Assembly: GCA_937929835.1 (NCBI GenBank)
Contig: CALFUU010000020.1
Span: forward strand, 1 to 64,000
From: an uncultured Saprospiraceae bacterium
GTDB taxonomy: Bacteria > Bacteroidota > Bacteroidia > Chitinophagales > Saprospiraceae
Direction of reading: 5' to 3'
DNA: 64,000 nt
Shown: piece after piece, positions 6,781 to 42,303 of the stretch
How positions within the stretch are numbered: position 1 is the first letter of the stretch
Layout: every line of letters starts with the position of its first letter
Notes under the pieces: generated by a model
Databases searched by the model: none
Seen by the model: the letters and a program-made list of their open reading frames with translations, nothing else
Told to the model about the DNA's origin: nothing
Translations under genes and position numbers: made by a program

Positions 6781-9573
6781 TTAGATAAATTTCTTGATCA
6801 AAAATCCTAGCGCCAAGAAACCAATAAATAATAAGATAAGTCCAAAATGGCTCTGCTGATGGCCAGACTCTAGCGCTCCTGGATTGCCTATAATGATGAG
6901 AGGTGCCCAGTAGTACGGAGATTTATAAGGGTTGGCTTGCATATACTTTAGCTTGGCACTTCTTAGAGCTTCAGGCTTACTCATACCGTCCTTGAGCCCT
7001 TTGTAGAAATTTCCTAAGACCTCTAAACCCGCAGATTCATTGAGATCCCAATTAGAACCTATAACTGCAGAAGCATCTACAAAGAGAAAGGCTCTTGCCA
7101 AGCTATTAAGTCCTTCACCGGCAAAACTCTCCCCATCCGTGCTCCTGCAAGAACTGAGTGTCACTAAGCTGGCATCAAGATTTAATTTATATATCTCCTT
7201 CAGAGGTACTTTAGTATCATGGAAGGCTATCCACGGATTATTAAGCGAATCTAGTCCACTATGAGAAGAAAAGTGGATGACATCAAAATCCGAGCTGGCG
7301 GCTACAAAATTTGCAAACGTTGCCTCTTCTGCGCGCAGTGTTTTGGTATTGGATAGTGTGGACAACATTTCTATCTCCTCAGTACTCTGGACCATAGCAG
7401 ACAGATGCATATCCTGAAACCGCTCTGGACTAACTAAGAGCAAATTATCAAAGTCTTTTTTATCCTTAAGCTTCATCAAGACGGAAAGAGAGGGTGCTAT
7501 AGAAATGACATGCTCTTCGATTAGGTACAGAGGGTCACCATTTTGCTTTCGGCCTTTTACCAGAGAATCAAACGAAAGATTGTTAAGGGGACCATCACCG
7601 AGGATGATTAGTTGCTTGGCATTGTGACTAAGACTATCTAGTAAGACGCCATATAGATTAGACGCTATTTCTAAAAACTCATTGTAACTATCCTTGTACT
7701 CTAAGCTATCCTTGTTACCTAGAAGTATATTCATTCTTTTGATCTGACTTCTGAGTTGTCTTGGTCTCCGTGTATGAAATAGCTCAGTCCCTTGTCTAGT
7801 GATGCTGTGTATAAACAGAGAATCTCTAGTCAAATGATACTGTACAATCTGAGAAGAATCAGAAACAAGATTTTCTTGAATCTCCTTTATACTTGGTGTC
7901 TCTACTTGAAACTTATACTCATAATAATGTGGGTAGGCATCTCGAAGCGAATCCAAGAAACTGGTATACTTCTCGTATGAAGAATGGTCTTTTCTCTCTG
8001 TATTAGAAGAAAATATCTTTCGCAAGTCGCGCTCCCGCTCAGCTAATTCTGCGGGTATAAGACCTAAGGCATCTTGATGATTCAGCTCATCCAATAAAAG
8101 CAAGGATCGGCTCTTCTCCATATACCTATGTACCTTCTCGTCATCCCCTAACCAGTTGCTTATCTCTATGATGTCATTATAATAAGATCGGGTCTTGCGC
8201 CGCCAGAAGACCTTAGCATCGTCGGTAGACAATTCCGCCCGCATAACATCTATAAGTTCTAGGGCATTGCACATATGCCGCTCTGCATTGACAGCATCTT
8301 CAATATTCTTGTGATCCAGATAGAGTCTTGCATAACACAAGGCCTTATCTTTTATGGAGGTCAAGAGATCCCACTTTAGAGATACCCCATAAAAATCTTC
8401 CTTGGGGATGACTTGTCGTACATCTGAAAATTCTGGATTGTCTAGTTTGCACTTAATGGCATTTTGTAATTGACGTATACCAGATTCTAGGTCGTTATTT
8501 CTTATATATCTGACCGCTAGGTTGTGATAATGGATAGCGGTTCCGGGCTTATAATCTTGTCCATAAAATTTATTACTCTCTGAAACAGCTAGCTTAGCAT
8601 ACTGTATCGAAAAATCTGGAAGACCAATCTTTTCATATTGTATACCCATTCCAGAATAGCAGTAGGATATTCTATCGTGCCGCTTATCATTGTCACTTTT
8701 CAGAAAAAAAGAAATGGCTTTATCGTAGTATTTTATCGCCTCAGAAGAAATCTGGAGATCTTGACGTTCGCTATTGATGATTGCTTTCTTATCAATGATT
8801 TGCTGCTCAGACAGTGTCTTATCATTATTAACAGCTCTGATCTGACTCTTAAAAGCATATCGTGAAGACCTCGCCTGTTCTGCTTTCTGCCAGGCCAAAC
8901 AAAAGTAGGCCGCTCCCCTATGGTATGCTAGACCATAAGTTTTGGACAGTTGTAGTTGTTTGTCGATACTTTGATCACAAGCGCTCTTATTGTCTAACCA
9001 GATGTTACCTCTGAAGATCTCATAATAGGCTTCACATTTTTCTTGTGGTGTGTCAGCAACATCGAGTGCATAGGTGGCGTAGTTGACTTGTAGATTATAA
9101 TTGCCTTGACTATAAAATATCTTCGCTAGAAGCATATAATTCTTGTAATCCTTACCATTCTCTAAGTCTTTATTTATGTCTATTGACTTATTGATGGCTT
9201 TCTCTGCATCTTTTAATCGGATCAGATGAAAAAGACAATCGGACTTATCTGTCAATGTATGAGCGAGTAGAGCTGGCTTATCAGCTTGCGTAAGGATCGC
9301 TTCTGCCTCATCATAGTAATCGAGTGCGGCAGCATAATCTCTTCCATCAAGGTGCCATTGTCCGAGGGCATTATAGACCTTAGCGAGAGTCGTATCAGAG
9401 GAGGTCAAGGTCTTGGTACTCTTTTCGAGCAGACCTTCTAACAGGACCAGTTGTGGATTTCTATCTAGCGACTCATACTGAAGTAACCCTTGCTCTACTG
9501 TTTCTCTTACAGACTCCTGTGCTGGGAGCAAGCTAGAATAAAAACAAAGCGCTATCAGAAGGACTAATCTCAA
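6781..9573 (-). CDS. TPR repeat plus CHAT (caspase-like) protease, predicted signal peptide and C-terminal TM anchor
   Basis: N-terminal MRLVLLIALCFYSSLLPAQ; TPR-like helices; CHAT core DVIHFSSHSGLD (His codon 7261-7263) and VTLSSCRS (Cys codon 7147-7149); LARAFLFVDASAVIGSNWDLNE; C-terminal FGLILLFIGFLALGFLIKKFI. Confidence 0.94.
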   Translation of the reverse strand: MRLVLLIALCFYSSLLPAQESVRETVEQGLLQYESLDRNPQLVLLEGLLEKSTKTLTSSDTTLAKVYNALGQWHLDGRDYAAALDYYDEAEAILTQADKPALLAHTLTDKSDCLFHLIRLKDAEKAINKSIDINKDLENGKDYKNYMLLAKIFYSQGNYNLQVNYATYALDVADTPQEKCEAYYEIFRGNIWLDNKSACDQSIDKQLQLSKTYGLAYHRGAAYFCLAWQKAEQARSSRYAFKSQIRAVNNDKTLSEQQIIDKKAIINSERQDLQISSEAIKYYDKAISFFLKSDNDKRHDRISYCYSGMGIQYEKIGLPDFSIQYAKLAVSESNKFYGQDYKPGTAIHYHNLAVRYIRNNDLESGIRQLQNAIKCKLDNPEFSDVRQVIPKEDFYGVSLKWDLLTSIKDKALCYARLYLDHKNIEDAVNAERHMCNALELIDVMRAELSTDDAKVFWRRKTRSYYNDIIEISNWLGDDEKVHRYMEKSRSLLLLDELNHQDALGLIPAELAERERDLRKIFSSNTERKDHSSYEKYTSFLDSLRDAYPHYYEYKFQVETPSIKEIQENLVSDSSQIVQYHLTRDSLFIHSITRQGTELFHTRRPRQLRSQIKRMNILLGNKDSLEYKDSYNEFLEIASNLYGVLLDSLSHNAKQLIILGDGPLNNLSFDSLVKGRKQNGDPLYLIEEHVISIAPSLSVLMKLKDKKDFDNLLLVSPERFQDMHLSAMVQSTEEIEMLSTLSNTKTLRAEEATFANFVAASSDFDVIHFSSHSGLDSLNNPWIAFHDTKVPLKEIYKLNLDASLVTLSSCRSTDGESFAGEGLNSLARAFLFVDASAVIGSNWDLNESAGLEVLGNFYKGLKDGMSKPEALRSAKLKYMQANPYKSPYYWAPLIIIGNPGALESGHQQSHFGLILLFIGFLALGFLIKKFI

Positions 9574-9588
9574 GAAGTTAAGTTTGGC

Positions 9589-10371
9589 TTACTCAAATGT
9601 AGCCAATAACTCCTGAGCTTGTTTGTGATTATAAGCTTTAGATGCGACAAGGTCTTTAAGTAAAGATTGAGCTTCAGGAAGCTTGCCTTGCTTGAGATAA
9701 CACTGTGCATCAAACCATTGGTATTTTTTTACTCTTGGATTGAGCGATTTGATATAGTCAAATGCTGCGTGCGCCTCATCAAATCTGTTAAGCTCCATTA
9801 GGGTTATGCCTTTAGCCAACAGGACATCCATATCCTTAGGTGCTACGGCTAGGTATGCTTCTATCTGAGGAAGGGCTTGGTCATAGTCCTGTGCATTATA
9901 GGCTTCTTGTAATGCCTTAGTTAAGGTCAGTTCTGTAACTGTACCCTTAGTGGTCAGATTAAGAGGCTCTATCATCGCATATTGCGCATAAGAATCACCT
10001 GAGTCTAACATATTGGGGAGAAAAACACCTACTAAAAGGAGCAACGAAGCTGCCATAGCTATAGATGTATATAAGAATCTTCTGCTTGAGGTCTTAGATA
10101 TAGGTGTCGGATTAGGATTATGAGATACGGCAACCTGGGGAGACGTCGCCGATGGTGCACCTCCCTTAATGGAGGCTAGGGTCGCTCTTATATCTGCTTC
10201 TAGAGGTGCGAACTCCTTAGCTTCTTTAAGTTCTGTAACTATTTGATAATCCATTGCGAGATCAGCATCACTTTGTAAGAAAGCTCTGAACTTGTCCAAA
10301 TCGTCAGCTGACATACCTCCGGAGAGGTAATCATCTAGAATTTCGTATTTATTATTCTCGTTGAGGTTCAT
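9589..10371 (-). CDS. Anti-sigma-factor-like membrane protein with C-terminal TPR-like domain
   Basis: Short N-terminal helical region (YEILDDYLSGGMSADDLDKFRAFL), single TM (FLYTSIAMAASLLLLVGVFL), TPR-like C-terminus; overlaps the sigma gene by 4 bp. Confidence 0.75.
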   Translation of the reverse strand: MNLNENNKYEILDDYLSGGMSADDLDKFRAFLQSDADLAMDYQIVTELKEAKEFAPLEADIRATLASIKGGAPSATSPQVAVSHNPNPTPISKTSSRRFLYTSIAMAASLLLLVGVFLPNMLDSGDSYAQYAMIEPLNLTTKGTVTELTLTKALQEAYNAQDYDQALPQIEAYLAVAPKDMDVLLAKGITLMELNRFDEAHAAFDYIKSLNPRVKKYQWFDAQCYLKQGKLPEAQSLLKDLVASKAYNHKQAQELLATFE

Positions 10372-10925
10372 AACAACTGTTTGAAAATAACGTCTCTTTT
10401 AATTTTGTCGATCAATTTTTTCTGGCATTTATACTTCTTTTGCTTTGCAGCATTTTCAGTATTGAGTCCCAATTCTACAGCTATATCTCTCAAAGACATC
10501 TTCTCGAAAAATAGCTCGAACAACTTTTGACATACTGGATCTAACTCTTTCAGCTTTTGTTGATACAACTGAAATCGTTCCAATTTCATAATTGACTCCA
10601 ATATGTCGTCTTTATCACTTAATGTACCTATCTCATCAATGGTTACGTTTTTGTTATGCTTTTTTTTCGATTCGTTGAACCACTTGAACTTGGCAATACT
10701 CACGAGGAAGGTATAAAATGAGCTACTTAGCTGAAAATCAGGCGATTGTGCTTTTTTTAGTATCACAATAAGGCTTTCTTGAAAAACTTCCCAAGCCTCG
10801 TCTTTATTACACCCCATCTTACCCAGTATCGCCTCTAACCTAGGCAGATACGTATCATAAATCTCCTTAACACCACGCTGGTCGTTGGTCAGAAGGGCAT
10901 TAATATAGGGATCTGAGTGCTTCAA
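10368..10925 (-). CDS. RNA polymerase sigma-70 family (ECF-like) factor, apparent TTG start
   Basis: DEAWEVFQESLIVILKK (region 2), FYTFLVSIAKFKWFNESKKK, LDPVCQKLFELFFEKMSLRDIAVELGLNTENAAKQKKYKCQKKL (region 4 HTH). Confidence 0.9.
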   Translation of the reverse strand: MKHSDPYINALLTNDQRGVKEIYDTYLPRLEAILGKMGCNKDEAWEVFQESLIVILKKAQSPDFQLSSSFYTFLVSIAKFKWFNESKKKHNKNVTIDEIGTLSDKDDILESIMKLERFQLYQQKLKELDPVCQKLFELFFEKMSLRDIAVELGLNTENAAKQKKYKCQKKLIDKIKRDVIFKQLL

Positions 10926-12804: not shown

Positions 12805-13485
12805 ATGAAAATGAAAAATTTTATTTTTTTTAGCACACTTCTATTTATTCTATTTACTGGCTGTATAGAAGATGACTTTATTGAAGACTTTGTAGAGCCA
12901 GAAATTTCGATTACCAATGCGATAGACACCTTGGGATTAGATACTGAATATCAATTTAATACGCGATTTCTCAACAATACAGGACAACAAGAAAGCGTAG
13001 AAGTTGTATGGGAAAGTTCAGACCCTACAGTGATTTCAATTACACAAAGCGGATTAGCAACAGCCCATAGTGCAGGTACAGTTGTTATTGCTGTCAACAC
13101 TGTAGACCAATCAATATCAGATGCTATCGAGGTTACTGTCGGAGAAGAAACCGTAGAAGTGGAAGAGCCAGCCTCCATCACTGGTTCGATTATGACGACT
13201 ACATTTTATGATCTAGAAGGAACATTTACACTATCAGAGACAGATACAGGCCTCTTTCTAGATATAGCCGACGATTATGTCACCACCTCAGCCTTACCAG
13301 GCTTTTACGTCTACTTATCCAATAACAGAAATTCGATATCGGGTGCCTTTGAGATTGGTGAAGTAACTGTATTTAGAGGAGCTCATAGCTACGAAATAGA
13401 CGGAGTAAGTCTCAATGATTACAACTTTATCGTCTACTACTGCAAGCCATTTAATGTAAAAGTGGGGGAAGCCGTACTAAACTAA
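12805..13485 (+). CDS. Lipoprotein with BIG2-like domain and C-terminal DM13-like domain
   Basis: Lipobox LFTGC; Ig-like VVWESSDPTVISITQSGLATAHSAGTVVI; DM13-like GTFTLSETDTGLFLDIADDYVTTSALPGFYVYLSN...YNFIVYYCKPFNVKVGEAVL. Confidence 0.8.
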   Translation: MKMKNFIFFSTLLFILFTGCIEDDFIEDFVEPEISITNAIDTLGLDTEYQFNTRFLNNTGQQESVEVVWESSDPTVISITQSGLATAHSAGTVVIAVNTVDQSISDAIEVTVGEETVEVEEPASITGSIMTTTFYDLEGTFTLSETDTGLFLDIADDYVTTSALPGFYVYLSNNRNSISGAFEIGEVTVFRGAHSYEIDGVSLNDYNFIVYYCKPFNVKVGEAVLN

Positions 13486-23457: not shown

Positions 23458-26400
23458 TTAGTTTGTCAAGAATACTCTTTTTGTTAAATCTACACCTCCG
23501 ACAGTCACTTGTACAGAGTAGAGGCCTTCATTATAGCTAGACATATCCATTCTGTATGCATTGGTCATATCAGAGGAAGACACAGTTTCTTTCTTAATAA
23601 TTCTGCCTAGATAATCGAGAACTTTAACTTCGCAAGTATCTTGAATGATTTCTGAAGTGAGGGAAAGATATAACCATCCATTAGTCGGATTGGGAAATAC
23701 GCTCAGTAAACTTTCTGGTCTATCATCATCACCATTGGTCACTGCCGCTACTTCAGAGTAGGAATATCGACCATCGATATCTATTTGCTTAATTCGATAG
23801 TAGTTCACACCATTCTGATAGTCCGCGTGATCCCAATTATAGGTCAAAACTTCTTGGCTATTTGTGTACAAAGATGCGACTTCACCTATAGGATTGAAAT
23901 CAAAAGTATTTTTTGTAGAGTGCTCTACTTCATACTTCAGCACATTGGTCTCTGAGGCAACTTGCCACACTATACTGTTATAGCCAGCTGCCGCTTTTGC
24001 TTCTATGCTCAGCCACTCTACAGGTAAAGGGCTCAAAGCAACACCGATATCCACACCTTCTATAACATCCCCAGGATTGACCATATAGAGTCTTGTGGTA
24101 TTGTTACCAAAAGTACCATCAAGGTCACTATCTCTAGAATCATCTTCACCAGCATTCGGTAATGTAGCTGTATAGTCTCTGCTAAACATTGCTTCTAGAT
24201 AGTAATGATCCTTGGGCAAGCCAGACAACCTATATTGGCCATTAGCATCAGAGACTGACGACGAGATGACATTACCTTCTTCCGTTAGTGCCAATACTGT
24301 AAGACCCTCCATCGGCAACTCCTCATCATCTCTAAGACCATCTAAGTTATCATCGTGCCAACAAAAACTGGCGATAGTCCCTTCGAGATAGAATCCAGCA
24401 TCGATCTCACACATATCCATTCCAGAAGTCAGGGTAAATTGATCCGTTGTGTTTCTACCAAAACGATCCGTCACATCTGAATCTACCGCTTCATTAAATC
24501 CTATGTTGGGGACAGCTCTTACAAAAGCACTTGCAACAGCATCGTATTTGATATAATAGACTCCCGGTGGCACACAGAACTTATAATAGCCATCATCGGA
24601 TACAGTCTCTGGGTGATTGCTTGTAAATACAAAGTCCTCCAAAAAGAAATCACCATTGACAATTCTAAATATTTCTACTTTAACGCCATTGATTCCAGAC
24701 TCCCCTTGATCAAATATATCATTCTCATTGAAGTCATACCAAACCAACTCCCCCACTGATACACACTCATAGAGACCTAGGTCTATGCTCAAGTTTATCT
24801 CGTTAGCTGATAGTGAAAAAATAGGCGTCGTATTCGGTCCATTTGAGTTATCGACATCACTATCACTTTCAGTATTGGCAGTATTAAATGCATCTGTCAA
24901 CTCATAGATATCAGGATAAGAAAACTCTATGTAATAATCGCCCTCAGGTACTCTTTCAAAAAGATAGTTGCCATTGTCATCCGTCATTGTCCTAGATATA
25001 ATGACGCCATTACGATTGATAAGATCTACTGTAACATCTGCTATCCCAGGTTCATTAAAGTCGCGGGCACCATTTCCATTACTATCTTCAAATACCAAAT
25101 CACCTATGGTTCCAAAACAAGCAGGCATATCCAGTTGCACCACTTCCATCATAGCACACCCCTGAGCATCTTCTACCGTAATTGTATACATACCCCCCGT
25201 GAGGTCTACAAAATTGTCAGAGCTGGAAAATGTAGCTCCTCCATTTATACTATAAGCGTAAGGTTCTGTCCCTCCACTCGCAGCAATAGATATTATTCCA
25301 TTAGGGAAATCACAGTTGGTCTGGTCATCCGCAATGATCACCAATGAAAGCGTGCCTGGCCCCTCTATAGTCTCCGTAGCGGAGTACAGACAGCCAAAGT
25401 CATCAGTAACTTGTATCATATAGCTCCCCGCCATAAGATTATCAAACTGACCAGAACCTTGGACATTTAATCCGCCATCAATACTGTACTCAAAAGGAGG
25501 AATACCTCCCGTTGTCGTAATCGTTATGCTACCGTTATCCATATCACAAGAAGTGCCATCCTGAGATGACACAGCAACTGTTAATGCATTGGCTACCGCT
25601 ACATCAATAGAAAAGACATCCGTACAGCCTGATCCTGAAACACTTACTTGATAAGCACTCGATGCAAGCGGGGATACATCAATACAAGCCGTAGTAGAAC
25701 CCTCTGACCATAAGTAACTTGGCGTCGGATTATCTGTAGACACACAGAGTGTGGTTATATCTCCTGGACACAATTCCTCTTCTGAGGCTGTCACTTCTCC
25801 GTCAAAACTTATGCAAGAGCACGGGCAACATCCAGAAACGATATCTATGTCCCCATAAAATCCCTTTTGTTGGGAGTCTGGCGCTCTAGCCAGATCTAAT
25901 AGAACTGAATTGGTAGGATTAGCACCCTCTATAGGCATATATTGTACGCCATATAGACATCCACCTAGAGCACAGTCTACACCTGTAAGCGCATCTGCAA
26001 TACTGGCTATAAAAGTACCTTTACCATTCGTACAACCGCTACTGCCTATATCGGCATAGGCAAAGTCAACGCCACCTAATGAATTGGTACCGTCGTTCTG
26101 TGTTCCGATTTGGAATCTATAATCTTGGTTACCAGTAGGTACCGTATTATTCAAGACCCATCCTCCTGTACTTCCTTCAAAGAGTAAGACCCTTGACTGA
26201 TGCGAGAACGAAATAGGAATTGTAGAGTCAAAACCCGACTCTCCTATCAGCATAGCCTGTTCATTTTGATCAAATTCTATATCCAGCACTGGGTGACTGA
26301 AGTCTCTAGTCGTACTTTCTGTGCCAGATAAGAAAGGCATATTTATTTCCAATCTATCAGAGCCTGGCACAAAATCACACGTCGATGGATCAAGACTTAC

Positions 26401-27852
26401 AGACCTAATTTGGTTTCTATTGCCATTGTCGATTCTATCATTGGCCCAGATAGAATAATACAATCTCATTTCTCTTGTATTGTATGATAAAGCTAGTACT
26501 CGCTCTCCCAGTGGTGCTAGGCCTGACCCCCCATCATCTGGCAATAGTGGGTCAAAGGTCGAAAGCAAATTGCCTGTGCCGTCATATCTATATATGGTCC
26601 CGTCTTCTAAGTTGGCCGCCATGACTTGATCACAGGTCGAGACATACTCTACTTGTGCTATGCCTGCATTTCCTGGCAGTGTAGCTAAGATTGTTGGGGT
26701 GCCAGTGACGGCATCTATTTTTATGAGGTCTGCTGAGTTAACAGGTGTAACTATCTCGAATAGACTTGTAACGCCTGTATATATGTTGTAGGCCTCATCG
26801 ATCGCCACACCAAACACCGGGCCGCCTAGATCTGTCGTCGTCCAAGAACTCGATTTCTTTTGGATGAGTGGCGATACATCCATAAAAAATAGGCCTTGAT
26901 TATAAAAATCATTGAGGGGTTGGATTCTATCTATGGCCAATGTCGTCTGGTCAAAGATTGTAGGCTGGCAAGTATAGATCGCATCTCCCACCTGCAATAG
27001 ATTACCTTCATTGCAACCCACGTAATAATTGCCCAATATACTTGTACAACTCGAGTCATCATTTCTGACAGCTACATCATAGTTGCCCGTCTGTAATCCA
27101 GGGAATGTATTACTCAGCTGCCAAGTCTGACCTCCATCTATAGAGTATTCGTAAGTACCAGAACCACCAGTAGCGTTGATTGTAATCACACCAATACCGC
27201 CTCCTGGGCAGAGATCATCTACAGTCTCATTGATGGTCGTCTCTATAGTTGCATATGCTGTTCCATTGACAGTATAGCAGACTTGCATCGAAATAGCATC
27301 AATTTCAGGTCTACCCTCTGCAGTAGCGGACATATTCTGTACTGTAAAGATGGCACCAAAAAGAGGGTCATTAATAATCTCAGGTGTGAGGGTAATGCCC
27401 CAATCTCCAGGCGCATAGGTCACTGTCTCAAAGCCTGTAGTTTGGTTAGACCAAGACGATGAAGTGTTGGCACCATTAACAGGACTAAGAGAAAAATCAG
27501 GGAATCTCAGGAAAAAAGTCTCATCTCTTACATCTCCTGTAGCAGCATTATTCCGTCTGATGAGATCAAATGTTACAGATGTGACCATAGCATTGCAGGG
27601 TATGTCAAAGCCAAAATCCCAAGCCCCTACCCTAGAACTACTGTCTCCTGGATCTAAAGGTGTAAATGGTACTATACTAACGACATTGCCATCAGGAGCA
27701 TTTCTTACACCTTCTGGATTGGTCCATGCAGAAGCCCCAGACACACCCGATAGGGAAGAATTACCGGCAAATGCATCTGTGCATATCTGTGCCTTAATCG
27801 TCACAGTTGAGGCCAAGAATAGTATACCCGATATTGCTGAAATAAATCTCAT
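23458..27852 (-). CDS. Large T9SS-secreted surface protein with SprB-like repeats, SdrD B-like repeats and C-terminal sorting domain
   Basis: Signal peptide; IGDLVFEDSNGNGARDFNEPGIADVTVDLINRNG and two further SdrD B-like units; FEYSIDGGLNVQGSGQFDNLMAGSYMIQVTDDFGC SprB-like repeats; C-terminal VFPNPTNGWLYLSL...YSVQVTVGGVDLTKRVFL. Confidence 0.9.
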   Translation of the reverse strand: MRFISAISGILFLASTVTIKAQICTDAFAGNSSLSGVSGASAWTNPEGVRNAPDGNVVSIVPFTPLDPGDSSSRVGAWDFGFDIPCNAMVTSVTFDLIRRNNAATGDVRDETFFLRFPDFSLSPVNGANTSSSWSNQTTGFETVTYAPGDWGITLTPEIINDPLFGAIFTVQNMSATAEGRPEIDAISMQVCYTVNGTAYATIETTINETVDDLCPGGGIGVITINATGGSGTYEYSIDGGQTWQLSNTFPGLQTGNYDVAVRNDDSSCTSILGNYYVGCNEGNLLQVGDAIYTCQPTIFDQTTLAIDRIQPLNDFYNQGLFFMDVSPLIQKKSSSWTTTDLGGPVFGVAIDEAYNIYTGVTSLFEIVTPVNSADLIKIDAVTGTPTILATLPGNAGIAQVEYVSTCDQVMAANLEDGTIYRYDGTGNLLSTFDPLLPDDGGSGLAPLGERVLALSYNTREMRLYYSIWANDRIDNGNRNQIRSVSLDPSTCDFVPGSDRLEINMPFLSGTESTTRDFSHPVLDIEFDQNEQAMLIGESGFDSTIPISFSHQSRVLLFEGSTGGWVLNNTVPTGNQDYRFQIGTQNDGTNSLGGVDFAYADIGSSGCTNGKGTFIASIADALTGVDCALGGCLYGVQYMPIEGANPTNSVLLDLARAPDSQQKGFYGDIDIVSGCCPCSCISFDGEVTASEEELCPGDITTLCVSTDNPTPSYLWSEGSTTACIDVSPLASSAYQVSVSGSGCTDVFSIDVAVANALTVAVSSQDGTSCDMDNGSITITTTGGIPPFEYSIDGGLNVQGSGQFDNLMAGSYMIQVTDDFGCLYSATETIEGPGTLSLVIIADDQTNCDFPNGIISIAASGGTEPYAYSINGGATFSSSDNFVDLTGGMYTITVEDAQGCAMMEVVQLDMPACFGTIGDLVFEDSNGNGARDFNEPGIADVTVDLINRNGVIISRTMTDDNGNYLFERVPEGDYYIEFSYPDIYELTDAFNTANTESDSDVDNSNGPNTTPIFSLSANEINLSIDLGLYECVSVGELVWYDFNENDIFDQGESGINGVKVEIFRIVNGDFFLEDFVFTSNHPETVSDDGYYKFCVPPGVYYIKYDAVASAFVRAVPNIGFNEAVDSDVTDRFGRNTTDQFTLTSGMDMCEIDAGFYLEGTIASFCWHDDNLDGLRDDEELPMEGLTVLALTEEGNVISSSVSDANGQYRLSGLPKDHYYLEAMFSRDYTATLPNAGEDDSRDSDLDGTFGNNTTRLYMVNPGDVIEGVDIGVALSPLPVEWLSIEAKAAAGYNSIVWQVASETNVLKYEVEHSTKNTFDFNPIGEVASLYTNSQEVLTYNWDHADYQNGVNYYRIKQIDIDGRYSYSEVAAVTNGDDDRPESLLSVFPNPTNGWLYLSLTSEIIQDTCEVKVLDYLGRIIKKETVSSSDMTNAYRMDMSSYNEGLYSVQVTVGGVDLTKRVFLTN

Positions 27853-30978: not shown

Positions 30979-33564
30979 TTGGAAAAGTCAAAGCTTTATA
31001 ATTTATCTAAGATATTCAGCCTCTTTATCCTCCTCACCATTGGTTCTGGAGATCTCCTAGCCCAAGAGAAAACTATAGTCAGAGGAAAAGTCTTTGACGC
31101 TAAGACAAAAGAGCCCCTACCCTTTGTAGATGTCACATTTAAAGATACTTATGTCGGTGCCTCTACAGATCTAGATGGGCAATATCTGCTCAATACCAAA
31201 ATACCCTCAGATAGTCTGATGGCATCATTTCTAGGGTATAAGACATCTACCCAAGCCATTGAGAAAGGTATACGTCAGGTAATCAACTTTTACTTGGAAG
31301 AGGAAGGTGTCATCGCCGATGCTGTCACCATCACAAGCAAAAAGGGTCGATACAAGAAAAAGAACAATCCAGCAGTAGACCTCATAAAGAAGGTCATTGA
31401 AAATAAAGACAAGAATAGAATAGCCAATGCAGAATTCTATAACTATAAGAAGCACGAGAAAATTGAACTCGATATTAATAATATTACTGAAGAGTTTACA
31501 AAGAAAAAGCAATTCAGAAATTTTCAATTTCTATGGAATTATCTTGACACCTCAGAAGTAAACGGTAGAGCCTACCTGCCTCTATATATGAGAGAGGTGA
31601 TATCCAATATACATTTTAGAAAAGATCCTAATTCTAAAAAAGAAATCAGGGAGGCCATCAAGATGACAAAATTTGATGAAGCCATAGATGTAGAATCTAT
31701 CAACAGTGGTATCGACATTATCTATGACGAAATAGATATCTATCAGAATAGTATTAAACTGTTGGACAATGACTTCTTAAGCCCACTAGCACCTTGGGGT
31801 ATCAATTACTATAGATATTATATACTAGACACTGTCATCGTTAATAATCAAAGCGCCATACAGATGGCCTTTATTCCTAGAAATAAAACTTTTATAGGAT
31901 TTACAGGAGATCTATATATATCTAATGACGATAACTACACTGTCCTAAAAGCAGAACTCGGTATAACAAAAGATATCAGTCTCAATTTTGTAAGAGACTT
32001 AAAAGTGACACAAGAATTTGAAGAAGTAGATGGCATCTATGTATTGAAGAAAGATAAGATGACCTTAGATCTTGCGCCATCAGAAAGTGGGCTAGGTGCC
32101 TACGCGAGTAGGATGAACCTATACGATGACTATAGCTTCATAGAGCATCCAAACGAAAATGTCTATAAAGGCGCAGAAGACATCAAGCAAGCAGATGATG
32201 TTTATAACAAGCAAGATGCTTACTGGACAGAAAATCGTATTGCCGCACTTACAGAAAAAGAGCAGGGCATCTACAATATGGTAGATACACTGGTCACTGT
32301 GCCTACTTACAAACGACTAGTATTCTTGACCAAGGTTGTTGCTACTGGCTACATCGAAGGAGATTACTGGGATGTAGGTGACTTGGGCACCTTCTTAGCA
32401 TTTAACGATGTAGAAGGATGGCGACCTAGATTTGGTGGTGAGACCTCACATAACCTGAGTAAAAAATGGCAAGCAGAAGCTTATGTCGCGTATGGTATCC
32501 GAGACAAAGCTTGGAAATATGAAGGCGTCTTTACTTATACGTTGAATGACGACTGGAAAGAAAATCCGAAAAATTTTCTTCGAGCCTCTTACACACACGA
32601 TGTCATCTTTCCTGGGTTACAACTAGAGTTTATAGAAGCAGATAATTTTCTAACCTCTATAAGAAGAGGAGAAGCCAATCAGATGCTATTTCTAGACAAG
32701 TACAGTCTTGAGTATTTTCTAGATAGAGATGTGGGATTCTTTAAGTTAGGTCTAGATAGAATGGGCAGAAGACCGTATGGTACTATGCGCTTCTTAGCAG
32801 AGAGAGATGGCTCTATAATTAATATTCCTACTGTCAATACATTTGAGTTTCACTTTGCAGGTGAATACTCTCCTAATGCTTCTTTTCTCCAAGGTAGAAA
32901 AAGCAGAGTACCTGTAATTGACAATGTTCCTAGATTTCAACTGAGTTATACTGGTGCATTTAAAGGTATAGCGGGTGGAGAATATGCTTATCATAAGGTC
33001 GCCTTAATTGCTAAAAAAAGAGTCCCTCTTTCTGTGGTCGGTCGGTCCCTCCTCGAAGCTGAGGTGGGCGGTGTGATCGCCAACAATGATCTGCCATATA
33101 TATTACTATACATACCTAGAGCCAATCAAGCCTTTTCTTTTCAGAGAAATTCTTTCAATACGATGAATTTCTTAGAGTTTGCTGCTGATAGATATGTACG
33201 ATTTTCTTGGCAACACTTCTTTGATGGTTATGTCCTCAATAGGATTCCACTTATCAGGAAACTTAACTTGAAGGAGGTACTTACCGCCAAGGTGATCTGG
33301 GGTGCCTTGAGTGACAAACATAATCCAGCTCTCCATCCTGACCTAATACAATTCAATATCAATCCGCTAAACGGAGAATCATTTACTTATCCATTAGAAT
33401 CCGATAGACCTTATATCGAGTATGGCATTGGTCTGTATAATATATTCAAGTTTATACGAGTAGATCTTATTAAGAGAGCCAACTATCTTGACCACCAAAA
33501 TGTAGAGAATCTCTTCAATGTAAAAGGTCTAGGACTAAGAGTAAAATTGAAAGTAGAATTCTAG
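30979..33564 (+). CDS. DUF5686-like outer-membrane protein with CarboxypepD_reg-like N-terminus, apparent TTG start
   Basis: Signal peptide; VRGKVFDAKTKEPLPFVDVTFKDTYVGASTDLDGQYLL; C-terminal barrel-like strands. No in-frame ATG before the signal peptide. Confidence 0.8.
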   Translation: MEKSKLYNLSKIFSLFILLTIGSGDLLAQEKTIVRGKVFDAKTKEPLPFVDVTFKDTYVGASTDLDGQYLLNTKIPSDSLMASFLGYKTSTQAIEKGIRQVINFYLEEEGVIADAVTITSKKGRYKKKNNPAVDLIKKVIENKDKNRIANAEFYNYKKHEKIELDINNITEEFTKKKQFRNFQFLWNYLDTSEVNGRAYLPLYMREVISNIHFRKDPNSKKEIREAIKMTKFDEAIDVESINSGIDIIYDEIDIYQNSIKLLDNDFLSPLAPWGINYYRYYILDTVIVNNQSAIQMAFIPRNKTFIGFTGDLYISNDDNYTVLKAELGITKDISLNFVRDLKVTQEFEEVDGIYVLKKDKMTLDLAPSESGLGAYASRMNLYDDYSFIEHPNENVYKGAEDIKQADDVYNKQDAYWTENRIAALTEKEQGIYNMVDTLVTVPTYKRLVFLTKVVATGYIEGDYWDVGDLGTFLAFNDVEGWRPRFGGETSHNLSKKWQAEAYVAYGIRDKAWKYEGVFTYTLNDDWKENPKNFLRASYTHDVIFPGLQLEFIEADNFLTSIRRGEANQMLFLDKYSLEYFLDRDVGFFKLGLDRMGRRPYGTMRFLAERDGSIINIPTVNTFEFHFAGEYSPNASFLQGRKSRVPVIDNVPRFQLSYTGAFKGIAGGEYAYHKVALIAKKRVPLSVVGRSLLEAEVGGVIANNDLPYILLYIPRANQAFSFQRNSFNTMNFLEFAADRYVRFSWQHFFDGYVLNRIPLIRKLNLKEVLTAKVIWGALSDKHNPALHPDLIQFNINPLNGESFTYPLESDRPYIEYGIGLYNIFKFIRVDLIKRANYLDHQNVENLFNVKGLGLRVKLKVEF

Positions 33565-37689: not shown

Positions 37690-40600
37690 TTAATCTAATA
37701 AGATCATTTTGTGTGTCTGCTGTGCCTTGTCTGTAAGGAGTTCGTAATACAAAACGCCTTTAGACTGCAAATTTTCTTTGGATAACAACACTGTATTCAT
37801 ACCCTTCTGACCAATTTTTTCTTCCATATAGACGAGTCTTCCGCTCACATCAAATATACTCAGTACCGTAGGGCTAGCCTCAGGCAAATAGTAGGTAATC
37901 TCGGTAAAATCAGTCCAAGGGTTCGGATTGTTATTGAACAATATCACTTCGCTACCCTCCTCACCAGAGAATCGATCTACTGTCAACTCCACTTCTCTCA
38001 CCTCTATATCACTATAAGCTTCCGAAGGAATGCGACTATGACTCAATGAAACTAAGTCACTGAGAAAAGCATCCTCATATGGTAAGATCAAAATTTCAAC
38101 CAAGTTATTCGAAAGTGAGACTGGATCTAAATTATACCAGACAAAAGATGCTCTTTCTTCCCTTACGTATGCCTGCCCTTGAGCCAACTGAGTAGCGAGA
38201 GGTGTCATATCTAGTATCACAGCTTTTTCAGTATTAATAGCTAAGTCAAATTGCAAACCACTTATATCAATGACCTCATTAGCGCTCAGAATTATAGACT
38301 GTTCTACACCTGCTTCTAGTTTGACATCTGGTGTATAGAGTTCTAACTTCTCTGATCTATTAGCTAATTCTGTATTGGTAAAATGCGTGTAAGATTGATC
38401 TACATCACCAATTTTTACACCTATAAAATCTATTTGCATATCGGATTCTAATCGAGGTATCAAATAGTCCTCTCTGATCGAAGCGTCAAATGGATTATCA
38501 CCCAAGTCTTGAGTAGCGTCAATGATTCTCCAAGAGTTATTCTGTGGAAAATCTGTGTAAACACCTAAAATCAATTTACGTAATTCTATCAAATCGATAC
38601 CATTAATTGCACCTGACTTATCAATATCAGCCGCTACCAGTTTATATGGCGAAGTAATTTTATCTACTCCAAGTATATGTCTTTGAATTTTTATCAAATC
38701 AATAGTCGACACACCATTCAGGTGATTGATATCTTTTTTAGCGTTCAACTGGTACGATCCTCCCGAAGGCATTTCGCCAAAGGCATAAGTACCTTGCGGA
38801 TCACTAAATTCTGGCGAAAGTGTAGACCCTGAAAGAACCAACTCCACATCCTCTACTTGTTGAGCAGACTCTGTCATTATATTACCTGCTATGACATTGG
38901 ATACCATATCCACACATTCTACCTCTATCTGTCGAGTACAGGTTTGTTGTAAACCGTTACAGCCTGTTGCCGTAATAGTGAAATTTGTCGTGCCTTGCTC
39001 AGAGACTTCTATCTCTAATGTGTTACTACCAAAGTAAGAGATAATATCTTCTCCATTGGCCCCGAAGTCAGCATCTACTCTCAGTGTGAAATCGCTAGGA
39101 TTACAAACTCCCAAAACATCAGTTACAGAAAAAGGTACGGTTAAGTTTTCCTCTGCACAAACGAAATAAAGCACGTCGGTATCTGGAAAGGTACAGTCTG
39201 AAATTGCCAAACTATTACTTTGCGACCCACTACACAAGTCAAGCTGCGTCACAGTTATCTGAGCCTCGCAACTCGTGTCCAATCCGAAATCATCCTCGAC
39301 ATATACAGTGACAGATACAGGGTTAGTACCCAACTCATTGCAAAGTAACGTTCGCTCCACTACAGAATCATCTGAGGCAAAAGAAAATCGAGGTGTGTAG
39401 ACACTACAACCATATTGCACCTCTGCTAGTGTATTGGCATTCAATACGACCATCGGTACATTATTCCATATCTGAACTGGAATTGACAGCGCATTACAAG
39501 TAACAACCGGCTGAGCCCCATCTGCTATACGTATGGTTTTTTCACAAGTAGTTTCATTTCCACAATCATCTCTTACCGATATAATAAATCTGTGATCGCC
39601 CACTGGATATCCATCAGGTCTTGCTGTAAGACTAGAGAAAGTCCCACCATTAGAAACATTAGAAGCAACTACTACAGGTAGTCCTGAAAAGAATAATCTT
39701 TCAGTAATTGTAGCCGTCGGCGAAGAGCAATTGTCTTGAGTGAATATTCCGAAATTAAAGTTGGCAGTCCCTGTACCATTAAGACAATTAGTCGCGGGAA
39801 AGGTTTCCATCTGACAAGTAGGATCCAATACCAGTGGTGCCTCATTTTCAGTGATATTTATCACTTGTTGCCACTCATATGTTGGTGGAGTGCCATTCAC
39901 GAGATCACCACACCAATCAACAACTGTCCAAGTTCTAATTATCTGAGAACAAGTACCAGCTACCAACTGGACTTGAGAAACAAGAGGCCAATCCTTGGTT
40001 AATGATACGCCTACGCTATTGCATCCGTTCTGTGTAAAACTAGGAGTTACTCTAGAAAATAATCCTAGAGCCTCTAATGTCTCTGGACTATAATCATCAT
40101 CTGCGCATCCTGTTACTGTCAGGTCATCTGGCCATACAATACTAGATGCATCAAACGGTTGAGAATTGGATGCAGTTAGAGTTTGTGTACAAGTAACGTC
40201 GTTGCCTGTATCAGAAATAATAAAAGTCCTTATAACAGTTCCAGAATTACATGGAGCATTAAAATTATTGAGATCAACTATAGGACCTGACACGGTAGGC
40301 ATAGAACAATTATCCGTAGATGTACAATCACCAAAGGCGGTCTTATCTGTAAAGTCAAGCCCAGCGCTACAATCAAAAGTCATATCTACAGGACAAGTCA
40401 CAACTGGCTCTATTTTGTCTTGTACAACAACGTTGGCAATACAGGCTCCAAAATTACCGTCACCATCCAGCACTCTGAGTTCTACAGTAAGGGGCTCAGT
40501 TGATTCTGCATCTTCACAGCAAAAAGCCACAGTGCTAGAAAAACCACAAGGATCATTCATTTCTAGGATATACGGAAACTGCTGACTACCAAAGACTAGT

Positions 40601-42303
40601 TCCCATTCTCTATTTTCATTAAGTATAACATGATTTCCAGGTACAATTGGTGCACCATTAGCATCCACTTGTTCTGGTGCCCAGTTGGCCATTCCTGTTA
40701 ATAAAGAATGATCAGACCAAACAAAAGTTCCATTGTCTAATAATGAAAGTCCTATATAAATAGAGTCGGCTAGACCCGCTAGTTCTGTTTCTAAAAAATC
40801 AACTGACACAGTCTCATTGAGGATTACAAGTCTACCCTCTAGGGACTGTGCAAAATTATTTGCCGTACTAATATTTGCCCCAGATTGAGATAAGTAGTAA
40901 TATCTTCCTGACTGCTCTCCCAAGAAATCAAACCCCTCTAGATTAGCAGGATTACAAGGACAGTTAGAATTGTTTCGTTTGATAACCGTCATAGACATAT
41001 CACAATTATCAAATGAACCATCATCAAAAGTCTGCGTTCTAGCAACCGCTGTCCCATCAGCTCTTAGAGATACCACAGAATTCTGATCGCAAATAGCGAC
41101 TGGTTGTGTATTGTCATTGACTGTGACTTGCTGCACACAAGTAGCAGAATTTCCACAATCATCATAGACAACGTAAGTAACAAGAGAAGTTCCAGATAAC
41201 TCAATAGTAAACCCAGCTGTAGTATTGTTAGAAAAACCTCCAGGATATTGGATGTCAACCTCTAGCTCTTCAGAGTTATTGAAAAAAGCTGAGCAATCGT
41301 CGGAAACGATTGGTAGATTAACCTCAAAGAAACCGGTACATGTCTGGTTAGCACCAACTGGTACTTCGACGAATGGGTCTCCACAATTAATTGTAGGCGG
41401 CTCAGAATCAGCTATCTCTATCTTCTGTACAGGATTACCTGATCCAGATTGAGGACAGTTCCATCCATTGAGCATCCAAGTCCTCATTATAACTTTCTTA
41501 CAGCCAAAATTTTCAGTTATAATATCACGATAATCAACGGATAGACTGCAATCTTGACTCGAAAAAGGATACAAACTTAGTAACTCACCATTCGACATTA
41601 GAACTGAAGGAGTTCCTGTTAATGATACATCAGGAATGCCATTGCTAGTTGCCAAATCCGAACAGACCAGATTAGTATCATCACTTAACTTAAAATCTTC
41701 TGGCCAAATAATTTGATCTATATCGATGCGATTTAGAGAAATTGTCTGAGTACAGGTAGACGTATTACCAAAACCATCTGTCGCTAGATACTCTATAGTA
41801 AATATCTTTAGATAATCGGCATTACAATCCAAGTCTTCAAACTCACGAGATGTAATGACGATTGAGGCTTCAGTCGAACAAACATCCGAAACTGAAGGCA
41901 TATAGCTTTCTAATTCAAAGCAATTTAAGTCGATATCATCACAAGCAATCTGTGGACCTAACTTATCCTCGACATTTATTATACCCCAACAGCTATTGTC
42001 ATTTTGACTAACCTTAGCAGTTACAGCCGTCCACAAGTGAATATCTCGAAGTGTATTATCACTAATAGTATCGCCATCTGCTTCTATTAGCGTTAAAGTA
42101 TAATCGCCACCATTAGCTAAGGACAAGATATCAGAAGGAAAAACTACTGCCGTGCAGTTGTTATCTAAAGAAATATTGACACTAGAATGACAACTTATTG
42201 CCTGAGCAGACAATTTACTATGACCTACGATACTAACAGAAATACAAATAATATATCCGCATAGCACTCTTAGAATAGAAGTAGGAAACTTCATACAAAT
42301 CAA
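37690..42303 (-). CDS. Large T9SS protein: HYR-like Cys-rich repeats, C-type-lectin-like domain (about 40555-40945), dockerin-like repeats, sorting domain
   Basis: Repeated 'xPVxxCxxxxxxxLxxxG...DNC' units; GRYYYLSQSGANISTANNFAQSLEGRLVILNE...YIGLSLLDNGTFVWSD; dockerin-like GVSTIDLIKIQRHILGV/AADIDKSGAINGIDLIELRKLILG; C-terminal NPWTDFTEITYYLPEASPTVLSIFDVSGRLV. Confidence 0.9.
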   Translation of the reverse strand: MICMKFPTSILRVLCGYIICISVSIVGHSKLSAQAISCHSSVNISLDNNCTAVVFPSDILSLANGGDYTLTLIEADGDTISDNTLRDIHLWTAVTAKVSQNDNSCWGIINVEDKLGPQIACDDIDLNCFELESYMPSVSDVCSTEASIVITSREFEDLDCNADYLKIFTIEYLATDGFGNTSTCTQTISLNRIDIDQIIWPEDFKLSDDTNLVCSDLATSNGIPDVSLTGTPSVLMSNGELLSLYPFSSQDCSLSVDYRDIITENFGCKKVIMRTWMLNGWNCPQSGSGNPVQKIEIADSEPPTINCGDPFVEVPVGANQTCTGFFEVNLPIVSDDCSAFFNNSEELEVDIQYPGGFSNNTTAGFTIELSGTSLVTYVVYDDCGNSATCVQQVTVNDNTQPVAICDQNSVVSLRADGTAVARTQTFDDGSFDNCDMSMTVIKRNNSNCPCNPANLEGFDFLGEQSGRYYYLSQSGANISTANNFAQSLEGRLVILNETVSVDFLETELAGLADSIYIGLSLLDNGTFVWSDHSLLTGMANWAPEQVDANGAPIVPGNHVILNENREWELVFGSQQFPYILEMNDPCGFSSTVAFCCEDAESTEPLTVELRVLDGDGNFGACIANVVVQDKIEPVVTCPVDMTFDCSAGLDFTDKTAFGDCTSTDNCSMPTVSGPIVDLNNFNAPCNSGTVIRTFIISDTGNDVTCTQTLTASNSQPFDASSIVWPDDLTVTGCADDDYSPETLEALGLFSRVTPSFTQNGCNSVGVSLTKDWPLVSQVQLVAGTCSQIIRTWTVVDWCGDLVNGTPPTYEWQQVINITENEAPLVLDPTCQMETFPATNCLNGTGTANFNFGIFTQDNCSSPTATITERLFFSGLPVVVASNVSNGGTFSSLTARPDGYPVGDHRFIISVRDDCGNETTCEKTIRIADGAQPVVTCNALSIPVQIWNNVPMVVLNANTLAEVQYGCSVYTPRFSFASDDSVVERTLLCNELGTNPVSVTVYVEDDFGLDTSCEAQITVTQLDLCSGSQSNSLAISDCTFPDTDVLYFVCAEENLTVPFSVTDVLGVCNPSDFTLRVDADFGANGEDIISYFGSNTLEIEVSEQGTTNFTITATGCNGLQQTCTRQIEVECVDMVSNVIAGNIMTESAQQVEDVELVLSGSTLSPEFSDPQGTYAFGEMPSGGSYQLNAKKDINHLNGVSTIDLIKIQRHILGVDKITSPYKLVAADIDKSGAINGIDLIELRKLILGVYTDFPQNNSWRIIDATQDLGDNPFDASIREDYLIPRLESDMQIDFIGVKIGDVDQSYTHFTNTELANRSEKLELYTPDVKLEAGVEQSIILSANEVIDISGLQFDLAINTEKAVILDMTPLATQLAQGQAYVREERASFVWYNLDPVSLSNNLVEILILPYEDAFLSDLVSLSHSRIPSEAYSDIEVREVELTVDRFSGEEGSEVILFNNNPNPWTDFTEITYYLPEASPTVLSIFDVSGRLVYMEEKIGQKGMNTVLLSKENLQSKGVLYYELLTDKAQQTHKMILLD

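What the first reader, a model, noticed from the sequence alone, without database searches (positions are those of the whole stretch)
6781..10925. Sigma factor / TM anti-sigma-like / exported TPR-CHAT protease operon
Seen: three same-strand genes, the first two overlapping by 4 bp and the third 15 bp downstream. The CHAT protein keeps both catalytic-dyad motifs (SSHSG His, LSSCRS Cys). It also has an N-terminal signal-peptide-like segment and a C-terminal TM helix followed by KKFI, implying a periplasmic protease. The anti-sigma-like protein has a short cytoplasmic N-terminus, one TM, and a TPR-like domain on the same predicted side. Known: CHAT is a caspase-like clan CD peptidase fold, and many anti-sigma factors are released by regulated proteolysis. 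Inference: the periplasmic TPR-CHAT could sense a signal and cleave or sequester the TPR anti-sigma, releasing the sigma factor. This would differ from cytoplasmic CHAT defence systems.
Basis: partly seen in the sequence, partly recalled or inferred. Interest (0 to 1): 0.72.

Follow-up and report, generated by a model that had tools for sequence, protein, structure and literature searches.

The report
Exported caspase-like protease with anti-sigma operon
An uncultured Saprospiraceae bacterium has a three-gene operon for a gene-switch protein (sigma factor), its membrane-bound inhibitor and an exported caspase-like protease, and the same trio recurs across the phylum Bacteroidota, so a protease outside the inner membrane may control transcription inside the cell.

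Summary
On the minus strand are an ECF-type sigma factor, a one-TM protein with an anti-sigma-like N-terminus and periplasmic TPRs, and a TPR-CHAT protein with an intact His771/Cys809 dyad, an N-terminal signal peptide and a C-terminal TM anchor. All seven same-genus orthologs keep the operon. In a sample of 55 other CHAT loci, 27 have a sigma/TPR-anti-sigma pair within four genes, in four orientations. The linkage also occurs in other families, the class and other classes of Bacteroidota. The dyad is present in 110 of 110 CHAT domains. AlphaFold (pLDDT 89) plus Foldseek give Csx29 (Craspase), separase and, unexpectedly, DdvA, the Myxococcus transmembrane anti-sigma factor, among the nearest solved folds. 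DdvA carries TPR and CHAT domains in the same chain as the anti-sigma domain, so it is a natural fusion of two proteins that are separate genes here. This argues for direct partnership, most likely the CHAT protein acting on the anti-sigma factor in the periplasm. Cleavage itself is untested; non-proteolytic co-sensing or an effector role remain open. Some CHAT genes neighbour T9SS-secreted proteins and subtilases. New variant of a known kind: a split, trans-acting relative of the DdvA arrangement, reminiscent of Craspase.

The parts
10368..10925 (-). ECF-type sigma-70 family sigma factor, 185 aa, TTG start (region 2 at 10662-10862, region 4-like at 10452-10568)
   Evidence: TIGR02937 50.6 bits over cut-off 42.9; Sigma70_r2 over cut-off, Sigma70_r4_2 below cut-off
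9589..10371 (-). Transmembrane anti-sigma-like protein, 260 aa: N-terminal helical anti-sigma-type domain, one TM, periplasmic TPRs
   Evidence: TPR_16 over cut-off; N-terminal profile's top PDB matches include anti-sigma RslA 3hug (E 0.022) and DdvA ASD 8rlz (E 0.21); 3 of 33 relatives match zf-HC2; model pLDDT 86.7
10165..10350 (-). Predicted cytoplasmic anti-sigma domain (residues 8-69), motif IDxYLxGxLxxxExxxFExxLxxD
   Evidence: alignment A1, helices in model
10018..10074 (-). Transmembrane segment LYTSIAMAASLLLLVGVFL (residues 100-118), positive flank on the N side
   Evidence: hydropathy and positive-inside rule
9946..9990 (-). Periplasmic juxtamembrane motif YAQYAMIEPLNLTTK (residues 128-142), family form LYAxYFEPYxxxxxxR
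   Evidence: conserved in orthologs but also in anti-sigma relatives without CHAT
9637..9909 (-). TPR domain of the anti-sigma-like protein (residues 155-245), predicted periplasmic
   Evidence: Pfam TPRs; Foldseek matches SycD, MamA and designed TPRs
6781..9573 (-). Exported, membrane-anchored TPR-CHAT caspase-like protein, 930 aa, TTG start
   Evidence: PF12770 140.6 bits, TPR_12; model pLDDT 89.4, pTM 0.84; Foldseek Csx29, separase, DdvA
9517..9573 (-). Signal peptide MRLVLLIALCFYSSLLPAQ (hydropathy prediction)
   Evidence: hydrophobic N-terminus, kept in orthologs and most homologs
6883..7668 (-). CHAT domain (residues 636-897) with His771 (7261-7263) and Cys809 (7147-7149)
   Evidence: dyad invariant 110/110, acidic residue at the E846 position in 109/110
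6787..6846 (-). C-terminal TM anchor (residues 910-929), including most of the basic tail KKFI
   Evidence: helix 910-929 in the model, hydropathy

Best explanation
The operon encodes a membrane signalling unit. The ECF sigma factor is held inactive by the cytoplasmic domain of the one-TM anti-sigma protein (inferred from architecture and family; not shown). The TPR-CHAT protein is exported, anchored to the inner membrane by its C-terminal helix and faces the periplasm beside the anti-sigma TPR domain (supported by sequence). When its TPR superhelix senses an envelope or surface signal, it acts directly on the anti-sigma protein, most probably as a site-1 protease with the conserved Cys/His dyad. 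The general site-2 protease (M50/RseP, present in the genome) would then release the sigma factor (inferred). It is a two-gene, trans-acting version of the single-chain DdvA anti-sigma/TPR/CHAT arrangement and works somewhat like Craspase (Csx29 cutting Csx30), but in the periplasm. Split of the confidence: direct partner of the anti-sigma factor about 0.65, of which cleavage of it about 0.4.
For: Operon confirmed and kept in all seven same-genus orthologs, one of them cut by a contig end. 27 of 55 non-orthologous CHAT loci have a sigma plus TPR-anti-sigma pair within 4 genes, in four orientations, so repeated arrangement rather than one inherited operon; also in other families, the same class and other classes of the phylum. 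In reverse, at least 34 of 63 strong anti-sigma hits lie within 8 kb of a listed CHAT, and 4 more proved linked on inspection; my rough estimate for chance is about 4. Catalytic dyad invariant 110/110, which argues for a working protease. C-terminal TM anchor is commoner in sigma-linked than unlinked CHATs (41/52 vs 26/52, Fisher p 0.004). CHAT profile's best PDB match is DdvA, a transmembrane anti-sigma factor annotated as a CHAT domain protein, E 8.5e-8, with His and Cys aligned; Foldseek finds DdvA E 5.5e-13 and Csx29 E 9e-15. Csx29 is shown to cut a sigma inhibitor (PMC10028731). CHAT and anti-sigma distances covary (rho 0.33, 1 of 500 permutations; 0.30, 11 of 1000 within the family). Site-2 protease present.
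Against: No cleavage evidence of any kind. Linkage is facultative: about 16 of 20 fetched anti-sigma loci without a listed CHAT really had none nearby. The juxtamembrane motif is not CHAT-specific. Anti-sigma activity of the second gene is inferred; its PDB matches to anti-sigma domains are weak. CHAT often sits in a divergent transcription unit (16 of 27), which fits a target gene as well as a regulator. The covariation test does not fully remove species relatedness.
Confidence: 0.42

Rival explanations
1. Non-proteolytic co-sensor: the exported TPR-CHAT protein binds the periplasmic TPR domain of the anti-sigma factor and changes its conformation or oligomeric state, as the TPR-CHAT part of DdvA may do in cis; the dyad is used for self-processing or for another substrate.
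For: DdvA carries TPR-CHAT in the same chain as its anti-sigma domain, so the partnership need not involve cutting the anti-sigma factor; both proteins here carry TPRs, typical binding modules; the candidate motif is not CHAT-specific.
Against: His and Cys invariant in 110 of 110 CHAT domains suggests catalysis is needed; Csx29 precedent is proteolytic.
Confidence: 0.23
2. Effector or regulon member: the sigma/anti-sigma pair simply controls expression of the exported CHAT protease, which acts on other periplasmic or surface proteins such as T9SS cargo or subtilase zymogens.
For: Divergent arrangement in 16 of 27 linked loci; genes within 2 of CHAT are enriched for T9SS-sorted proteins (31/340 vs 4/305 farther away) and subtilases (16 vs 0); orthologs L033 and L034 continue with a T9SS-CTD protein and collagen-like adhesins; unlinked CHATs also are exported.
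Against: DdvA fusion and Craspase imply regulatory use of CHAT; membrane anchor associated with linkage; in the window the CHAT gene lies in the sigma operon itself. T9SS cargo is abundant in these genomes (at least 150 in this one), so that part of the enrichment is weaker than it looks.
Confidence: 0.25
3. Cytoplasmic immunity module like Craspase or caspase-type abortive infection.
For: Fold similarity to Csx29; DdvS, the sigma partner of DdvA, controls a CBASS-CRISPR island in Myxococcus (PMC12288465).
Against: Signal peptide and C-terminal anchor in most homologs; no PADLOC match; no CRISPR gene recognised among the neighbours scanned.
Confidence: 0.05
4. Chance neighbourhood of unrelated genes.
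For: Some anti-sigma pairs have no CHAT nearby.
Against: Seven orthologous operons and 27 of 55 further loci in four orientations; recurrence across the phylum.
Confidence: 0.02

Closest known systems
DdvA/DdvS of Myxococcus xanthus (transmembrane anti-sigma factor, PDB 8ROT, 8RW5, 8RLZ)
   Same: ECF sigma with a transmembrane anti-sigma factor that carries TPR and CHAT domains; best PDB sequence match of the CHAT profile (E 8.5e-8) and a Foldseek match; its anti-sigma domain is also among the weak top matches of the N-terminal profile.
   Different: One polypeptide there, two genes here; here the anti-sigma keeps its own short TPR domain and the CHAT protein has its own signal peptide and C-terminal anchor. 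The DdvA papers could not be opened here.
Craspase: Csx29 (TPR-CHAT) / Csx30 / CASP-sigma, type III-E CRISPR
   Same: TPR-CHAT protease, sigma inhibitor and ECF-like sigma in one locus; top Foldseek match (8EEY, E 9e-15); cleavage of the inhibitor is shown there (PMC10028731).
   Different: Cytoplasmic and RNA-guided through Cas7-11; here exported, membrane-bound and without CRISPR parts.
CalpL/CalpT/CalpS (type III CRISPR Lon protease with sigma and anti-sigma)
   Same: Protease-controlled sigma release (from memory; CalpL paper PMC11417357 only listed, not read).
   Different: SAVED-Lon protease, cytoplasmic, second-messenger driven.
ECF54 sigma factors
   Same: Reported conserved context of CHAT, subtilase and carboxypeptidase genes and proposed proteolytic control (PMC8999054).
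   Different: Actinobacterial model example and explicitly without an anti-sigma factor; here a transmembrane anti-sigma is present.
RseA/DegS/RseP and RsiW regulated intramembrane proteolysis
   Same: Proposed logic: periplasmic site-1 cut of a one-TM anti-sigma, then site-2 protease.
   Different: Site-1 protease here would be a caspase-like CHAT enzyme of the same operon instead of a PDZ serine protease or PrsW.

Membership tests
CHAT (PF12770) clan CD peptidases | CHAT domain over the curated cut-off | tested here: met
   140.6 bits vs 24
CHAT (PF12770) clan CD peptidases | His/Cys catalytic dyad | tested here: met
   H771 and C809; 110/110 relatives
CHAT (PF12770) clan CD peptidases | Peptidase activity | not testable with these tools
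   needs purified protein
ECF sigma factors | Sigma regions 2 and 4 only, family model over cut-off | tested here: met
   TIGR02937 50.6 vs 42.9, 185 aa, region 2 over cut-off; region 4 Pfam match below cut-off
Transmembrane anti-sigma factors | Gene directly downstream of sigma, cytoplasmic N-terminal domain, one TM | tested here: met
   4-bp overlap, TM at 100-118, N side positive; 69 sigma-adjacent relatives recovered, 68 with a single TM
Transmembrane anti-sigma factors | Anti-sigma domain fold or homology | tested here: inconclusive
   weak PDB matches to RslA (E 0.022) and DdvA ASD (E 0.21), zf-HC2 in 3 of 33 relatives
Transmembrane anti-sigma factors | Binding and inhibition of the sigma factor | not testable with these tools
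   needs experiment or complex prediction
DdvA-type anti-sigma factor | Anti-sigma domain, TM, TPR and CHAT in one chain | tested here: not met
   separate genes here; no fused form seen among 104 CHAT ORFs over 800 aa inspected
Craspase (type III-E) | Cas7-11 and CRISPR parts at the locus | tested here: not met
   neighbours are a UvrD-like helicase, an AraC-type regulator and other non-Cas genes; no PADLOC match of the three proteins
Craspase (type III-E) | Cytoplasmic TPR-CHAT protease | tested here: not met
   signal peptide and C-terminal TM
ECF54 | CHAT/subtilase context without anti-sigma factor | tested here: not met
   anti-sigma-like gene present; the ECF classification itself could not be run

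The most novel reading that the evidence does not exclude
A phylum-wide family of exported, membrane-anchored caspase-like (CHAT) proteases that sense an outside signal and activate dedicated ECF sigma factors by cutting their transmembrane TPR anti-sigma partners, present in many paralogous copies per genome in Saprospiraceae and tied to surface proteins and secreted subtilases: an 'outside-in caspase' transcription switch.
Probability: 0.35. Interest if true: 0.85.

Novelty: new variant of a known kind. Interest (0 to 1): 0.63.

Why it matters
Bacterial CHAT proteases are known mainly from cytoplasmic CRISPR and cell-death settings, and many exported TPR-CHAT proteins in Bacteroidota have no assigned role. 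Showing that they are recurrent neighbours of ECF sigma/TPR-anti-sigma pairs, and that DdvA is a natural fusion of the two parts, gives this large set of unexplained proteins a concrete, testable function. It would also add a caspase-type enzyme to the short list of proteases known to trigger sigma-factor release across a membrane.

Tried and rejected
(1) Stop-codon read-through joining anti-sigma and CHAT: same frame in the window and closest ortholog, but spacing in other orthologs is not a multiple of three. (2) CHAT-specific cleavage motif: the juxtamembrane LYAxYFEPYxxxxxxR motif is in linked and unlinked anti-sigma proteins. (3) Defence island: no PADLOC match. (4) Sequence-only PDB search with the single CHAT protein: nothing useful; with the full-length profile: only TPR proteins on top; the CHAT-only profile was needed. 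(5) Conserved promoter upstream of sigma: no obvious shared element by eye in seven orthologs. (6) Plasmid search: only distant, partial CHAT matches. (7) Co-folding of anti-sigma with CHAT was considered, but no multimer mode or coordinates were available. (8) DdvA papers PMC11506125 and PMC6061681 and the ECF classification PMC7826278 are not held. (9) Fused DdvA-like proteins in the sampled Bacteroidota loci: none seen.
Full report
OBSERVATION. The three minus-strand ORFs are present at the stated coordinates with the stated 4-bp overlap and 15-bp gap. The CHAT domain, the TPRs of both proteins and the ECF sigma signature are recognised by curated models. Sigma and CHAT genes both start at TTG; the CHAT TTG is kept in some orthologs. 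His771 and Cys809 are in the expected motifs and invariant in all relatives examined: 63/63 in the first set and 110/110 in the enlarged set. An acidic residue at the E846 position, 37 residues after the Cys, is kept in 109/110; separase has acidic residues at the same spacing, from memory, so a basic P1 residue is only a guess.

ORGANISM AND COPY NUMBER. The window lies on a 75-kb contig of a 193-contig assembly of about 3.5 Mb with a single CHAT gene over the cut-off. The closest named record is an uncultured Saprospiraceae MAG with an 87% identical CHAT protein. Other genomes of the same family carry up to 18 CHAT-like matches each.

LINKAGE. I fetched neighbourhoods of CHAT homologs from 60 relatives searched. 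All seven same-genus orthologs (40-87% identity for the six full-length ones) have sigma, TPR-anti-sigma and CHAT in that order (one at a contig end). Of 55 other CHAT loci, several truncated by contig ends, 27 have a sigma/anti-sigma pair within four genes: 16 divergent, 6 convergent, 3 with CHAT upstream and 2 with CHAT downstream on the same strand. A phylum-wide sample shows the same in the same family, order and class, and outside the class (L118, L123, L130, L131). In reverse, of 63 strong anti-sigma hits in 41 genomes searched, 34 lie within 8 kb of a CHAT already listed and 4 of 20 'unlinked' ones proved linked when fetched. With at most about 20 CHAT genes in a 6-Mb genome I estimate about 4 by chance; this is an estimate, and the profile was built largely from linked cases. 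Unlinked sigma/anti-sigma pairs are real, so the partnership in cis is facultative.

TOPOLOGY. By hydropathy, 47 of 52 linked and 49 of 52 unlinked CHAT proteins have a signal-peptide-like N-terminus. A C-terminal TM is present in 41 of 52 linked against 26 of 52 unlinked (Fisher p 0.004, not corrected for relatedness). The anti-sigma family has one TM near residue 84 with the more positive flank on the N side in 61 of 68. Both TPR domains are therefore predicted to face the periplasm.

STRUCTURE AND THE DdvA LINK. The CHAT protein was modelled with high confidence (pLDDT 89.4, pTM 0.84): an all-helical TPR superhelix, a caspase-like alpha/beta domain and a terminal helix. Foldseek against the PDB gives Csx29 in Craspase first, then human separase, and the Myxococcus transmembrane anti-sigma factor DdvA (8ROT, E 5.5e-13). 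A CHAT-only profile finds DdvA as the best PDB sequence match (E 8.5e-8), ahead of the Csx29 proteins, with His and Cys aligned. The N-terminal profile of the anti-sigma-like family has as weak best matches a Nif11 protein (E 0.0066), the anti-sigma factor RslA (named from memory; 3hug, E 0.022) and the DdvA anti-sigma domain (E 0.21). DdvA is therefore a single-chain fusion of the parts encoded here by two genes. DdvS, its sigma partner, controls a CBASS/CRISPR island (PMC12288465).

MECHANISM. Shown by sequence: operon, linkage, export signals, dyad, predicted fold. Inferred: sigma inhibition by the second protein, sensing by the TPR superhelix, action of CHAT on the anti-sigma factor, and later release by the site-2 protease, which the genome has. 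Direct partnership is favoured by DdvA, by linkage in all orientations, by the membrane anchor and by covariation of CHAT and anti-sigma distances. Whether the act is cleavage is undecided: the invariant dyad and Craspase argue for it, while the conserved juxtamembrane motif does not discriminate.

OTHER CONTEXT. Genes within two of a CHAT gene are enriched for T9SS-sorted proteins (31/340 vs 4/305) and subtilases (16 vs 0), several of them LRR-subtilases. In orthologs L033 and L034 the operon is followed by a small T9SS-sorted protein and collagen-like adhesins. T9SS cargo is very common in this genome (at least 150 genes), so the first enrichment should be read cautiously. It raises the possibility that surface proteins are sensors, targets or substrates of the module. 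The window copy has no such neighbour directly beside it.

PRIOR WORK. I found no paper in the open library that describes sigma/TPR-anti-sigma/exported CHAT linkage in Bacteroidota. Related ideas exist: Craspase (PMC10028731), ECF54 (PMC8999054) and DdvA. Subscription papers and the DdvA papers could not be read, so novelty is limited to 'new variant'.

LIMITS. ORFs were called mechanically; CHAT lists were truncated and limited to 14 scored candidates per genome; related loci are not independent; topology rests on hydropathy rather than trained predictors; no complex prediction was possible.

Noticed in passing
L033:8886-12000 and L034:133-1610: In two same-genus orthologs the sigma/anti-sigma/CHAT operon is followed by a 157-aa T9SS-CTD protein and collagen-like adhesin genes, possible regulon or sensors.
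   Followed up: partly
L039, L044, L061, L065, L073, L083, L089: Exported CHAT genes sit beside secreted subtilases, several with long leucine-rich repeat regions; subtilases were found within 2 genes of CHAT in 16 cases and never 4 or more genes away in the same stretches.
   Followed up: partly
window 44113-58314 (-): A 4733-aa ORF with DUF11-type repeats and a T9SS sorting tail; two more large T9SS-type surface proteins at 37690-42303 and 23458-27852 (the latter with SprB and SdrD_B repeats).
   Followed up: no
window 30979-33564 (+): ORF matching DUF5686 with a carboxypeptidase-regulatory-like domain, an uncharacterised protein.
   Followed up: no
L162, L163, L165, L168-L171, L173-L177, L179, L181: Sigma plus TPR-anti-sigma pairs without any CHAT nearby; most share a similar periplasmic juxtamembrane motif; what controls them is open.
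   Followed up: partly
window 12805-13485 (+): Putative lipoprotein with Big_2-like and DM13 domains next to a carboxymuconolactone decarboxylase-like gene and an AraC regulator, divergent from the sigma operon; kept in ortholog L032.
   Followed up: no
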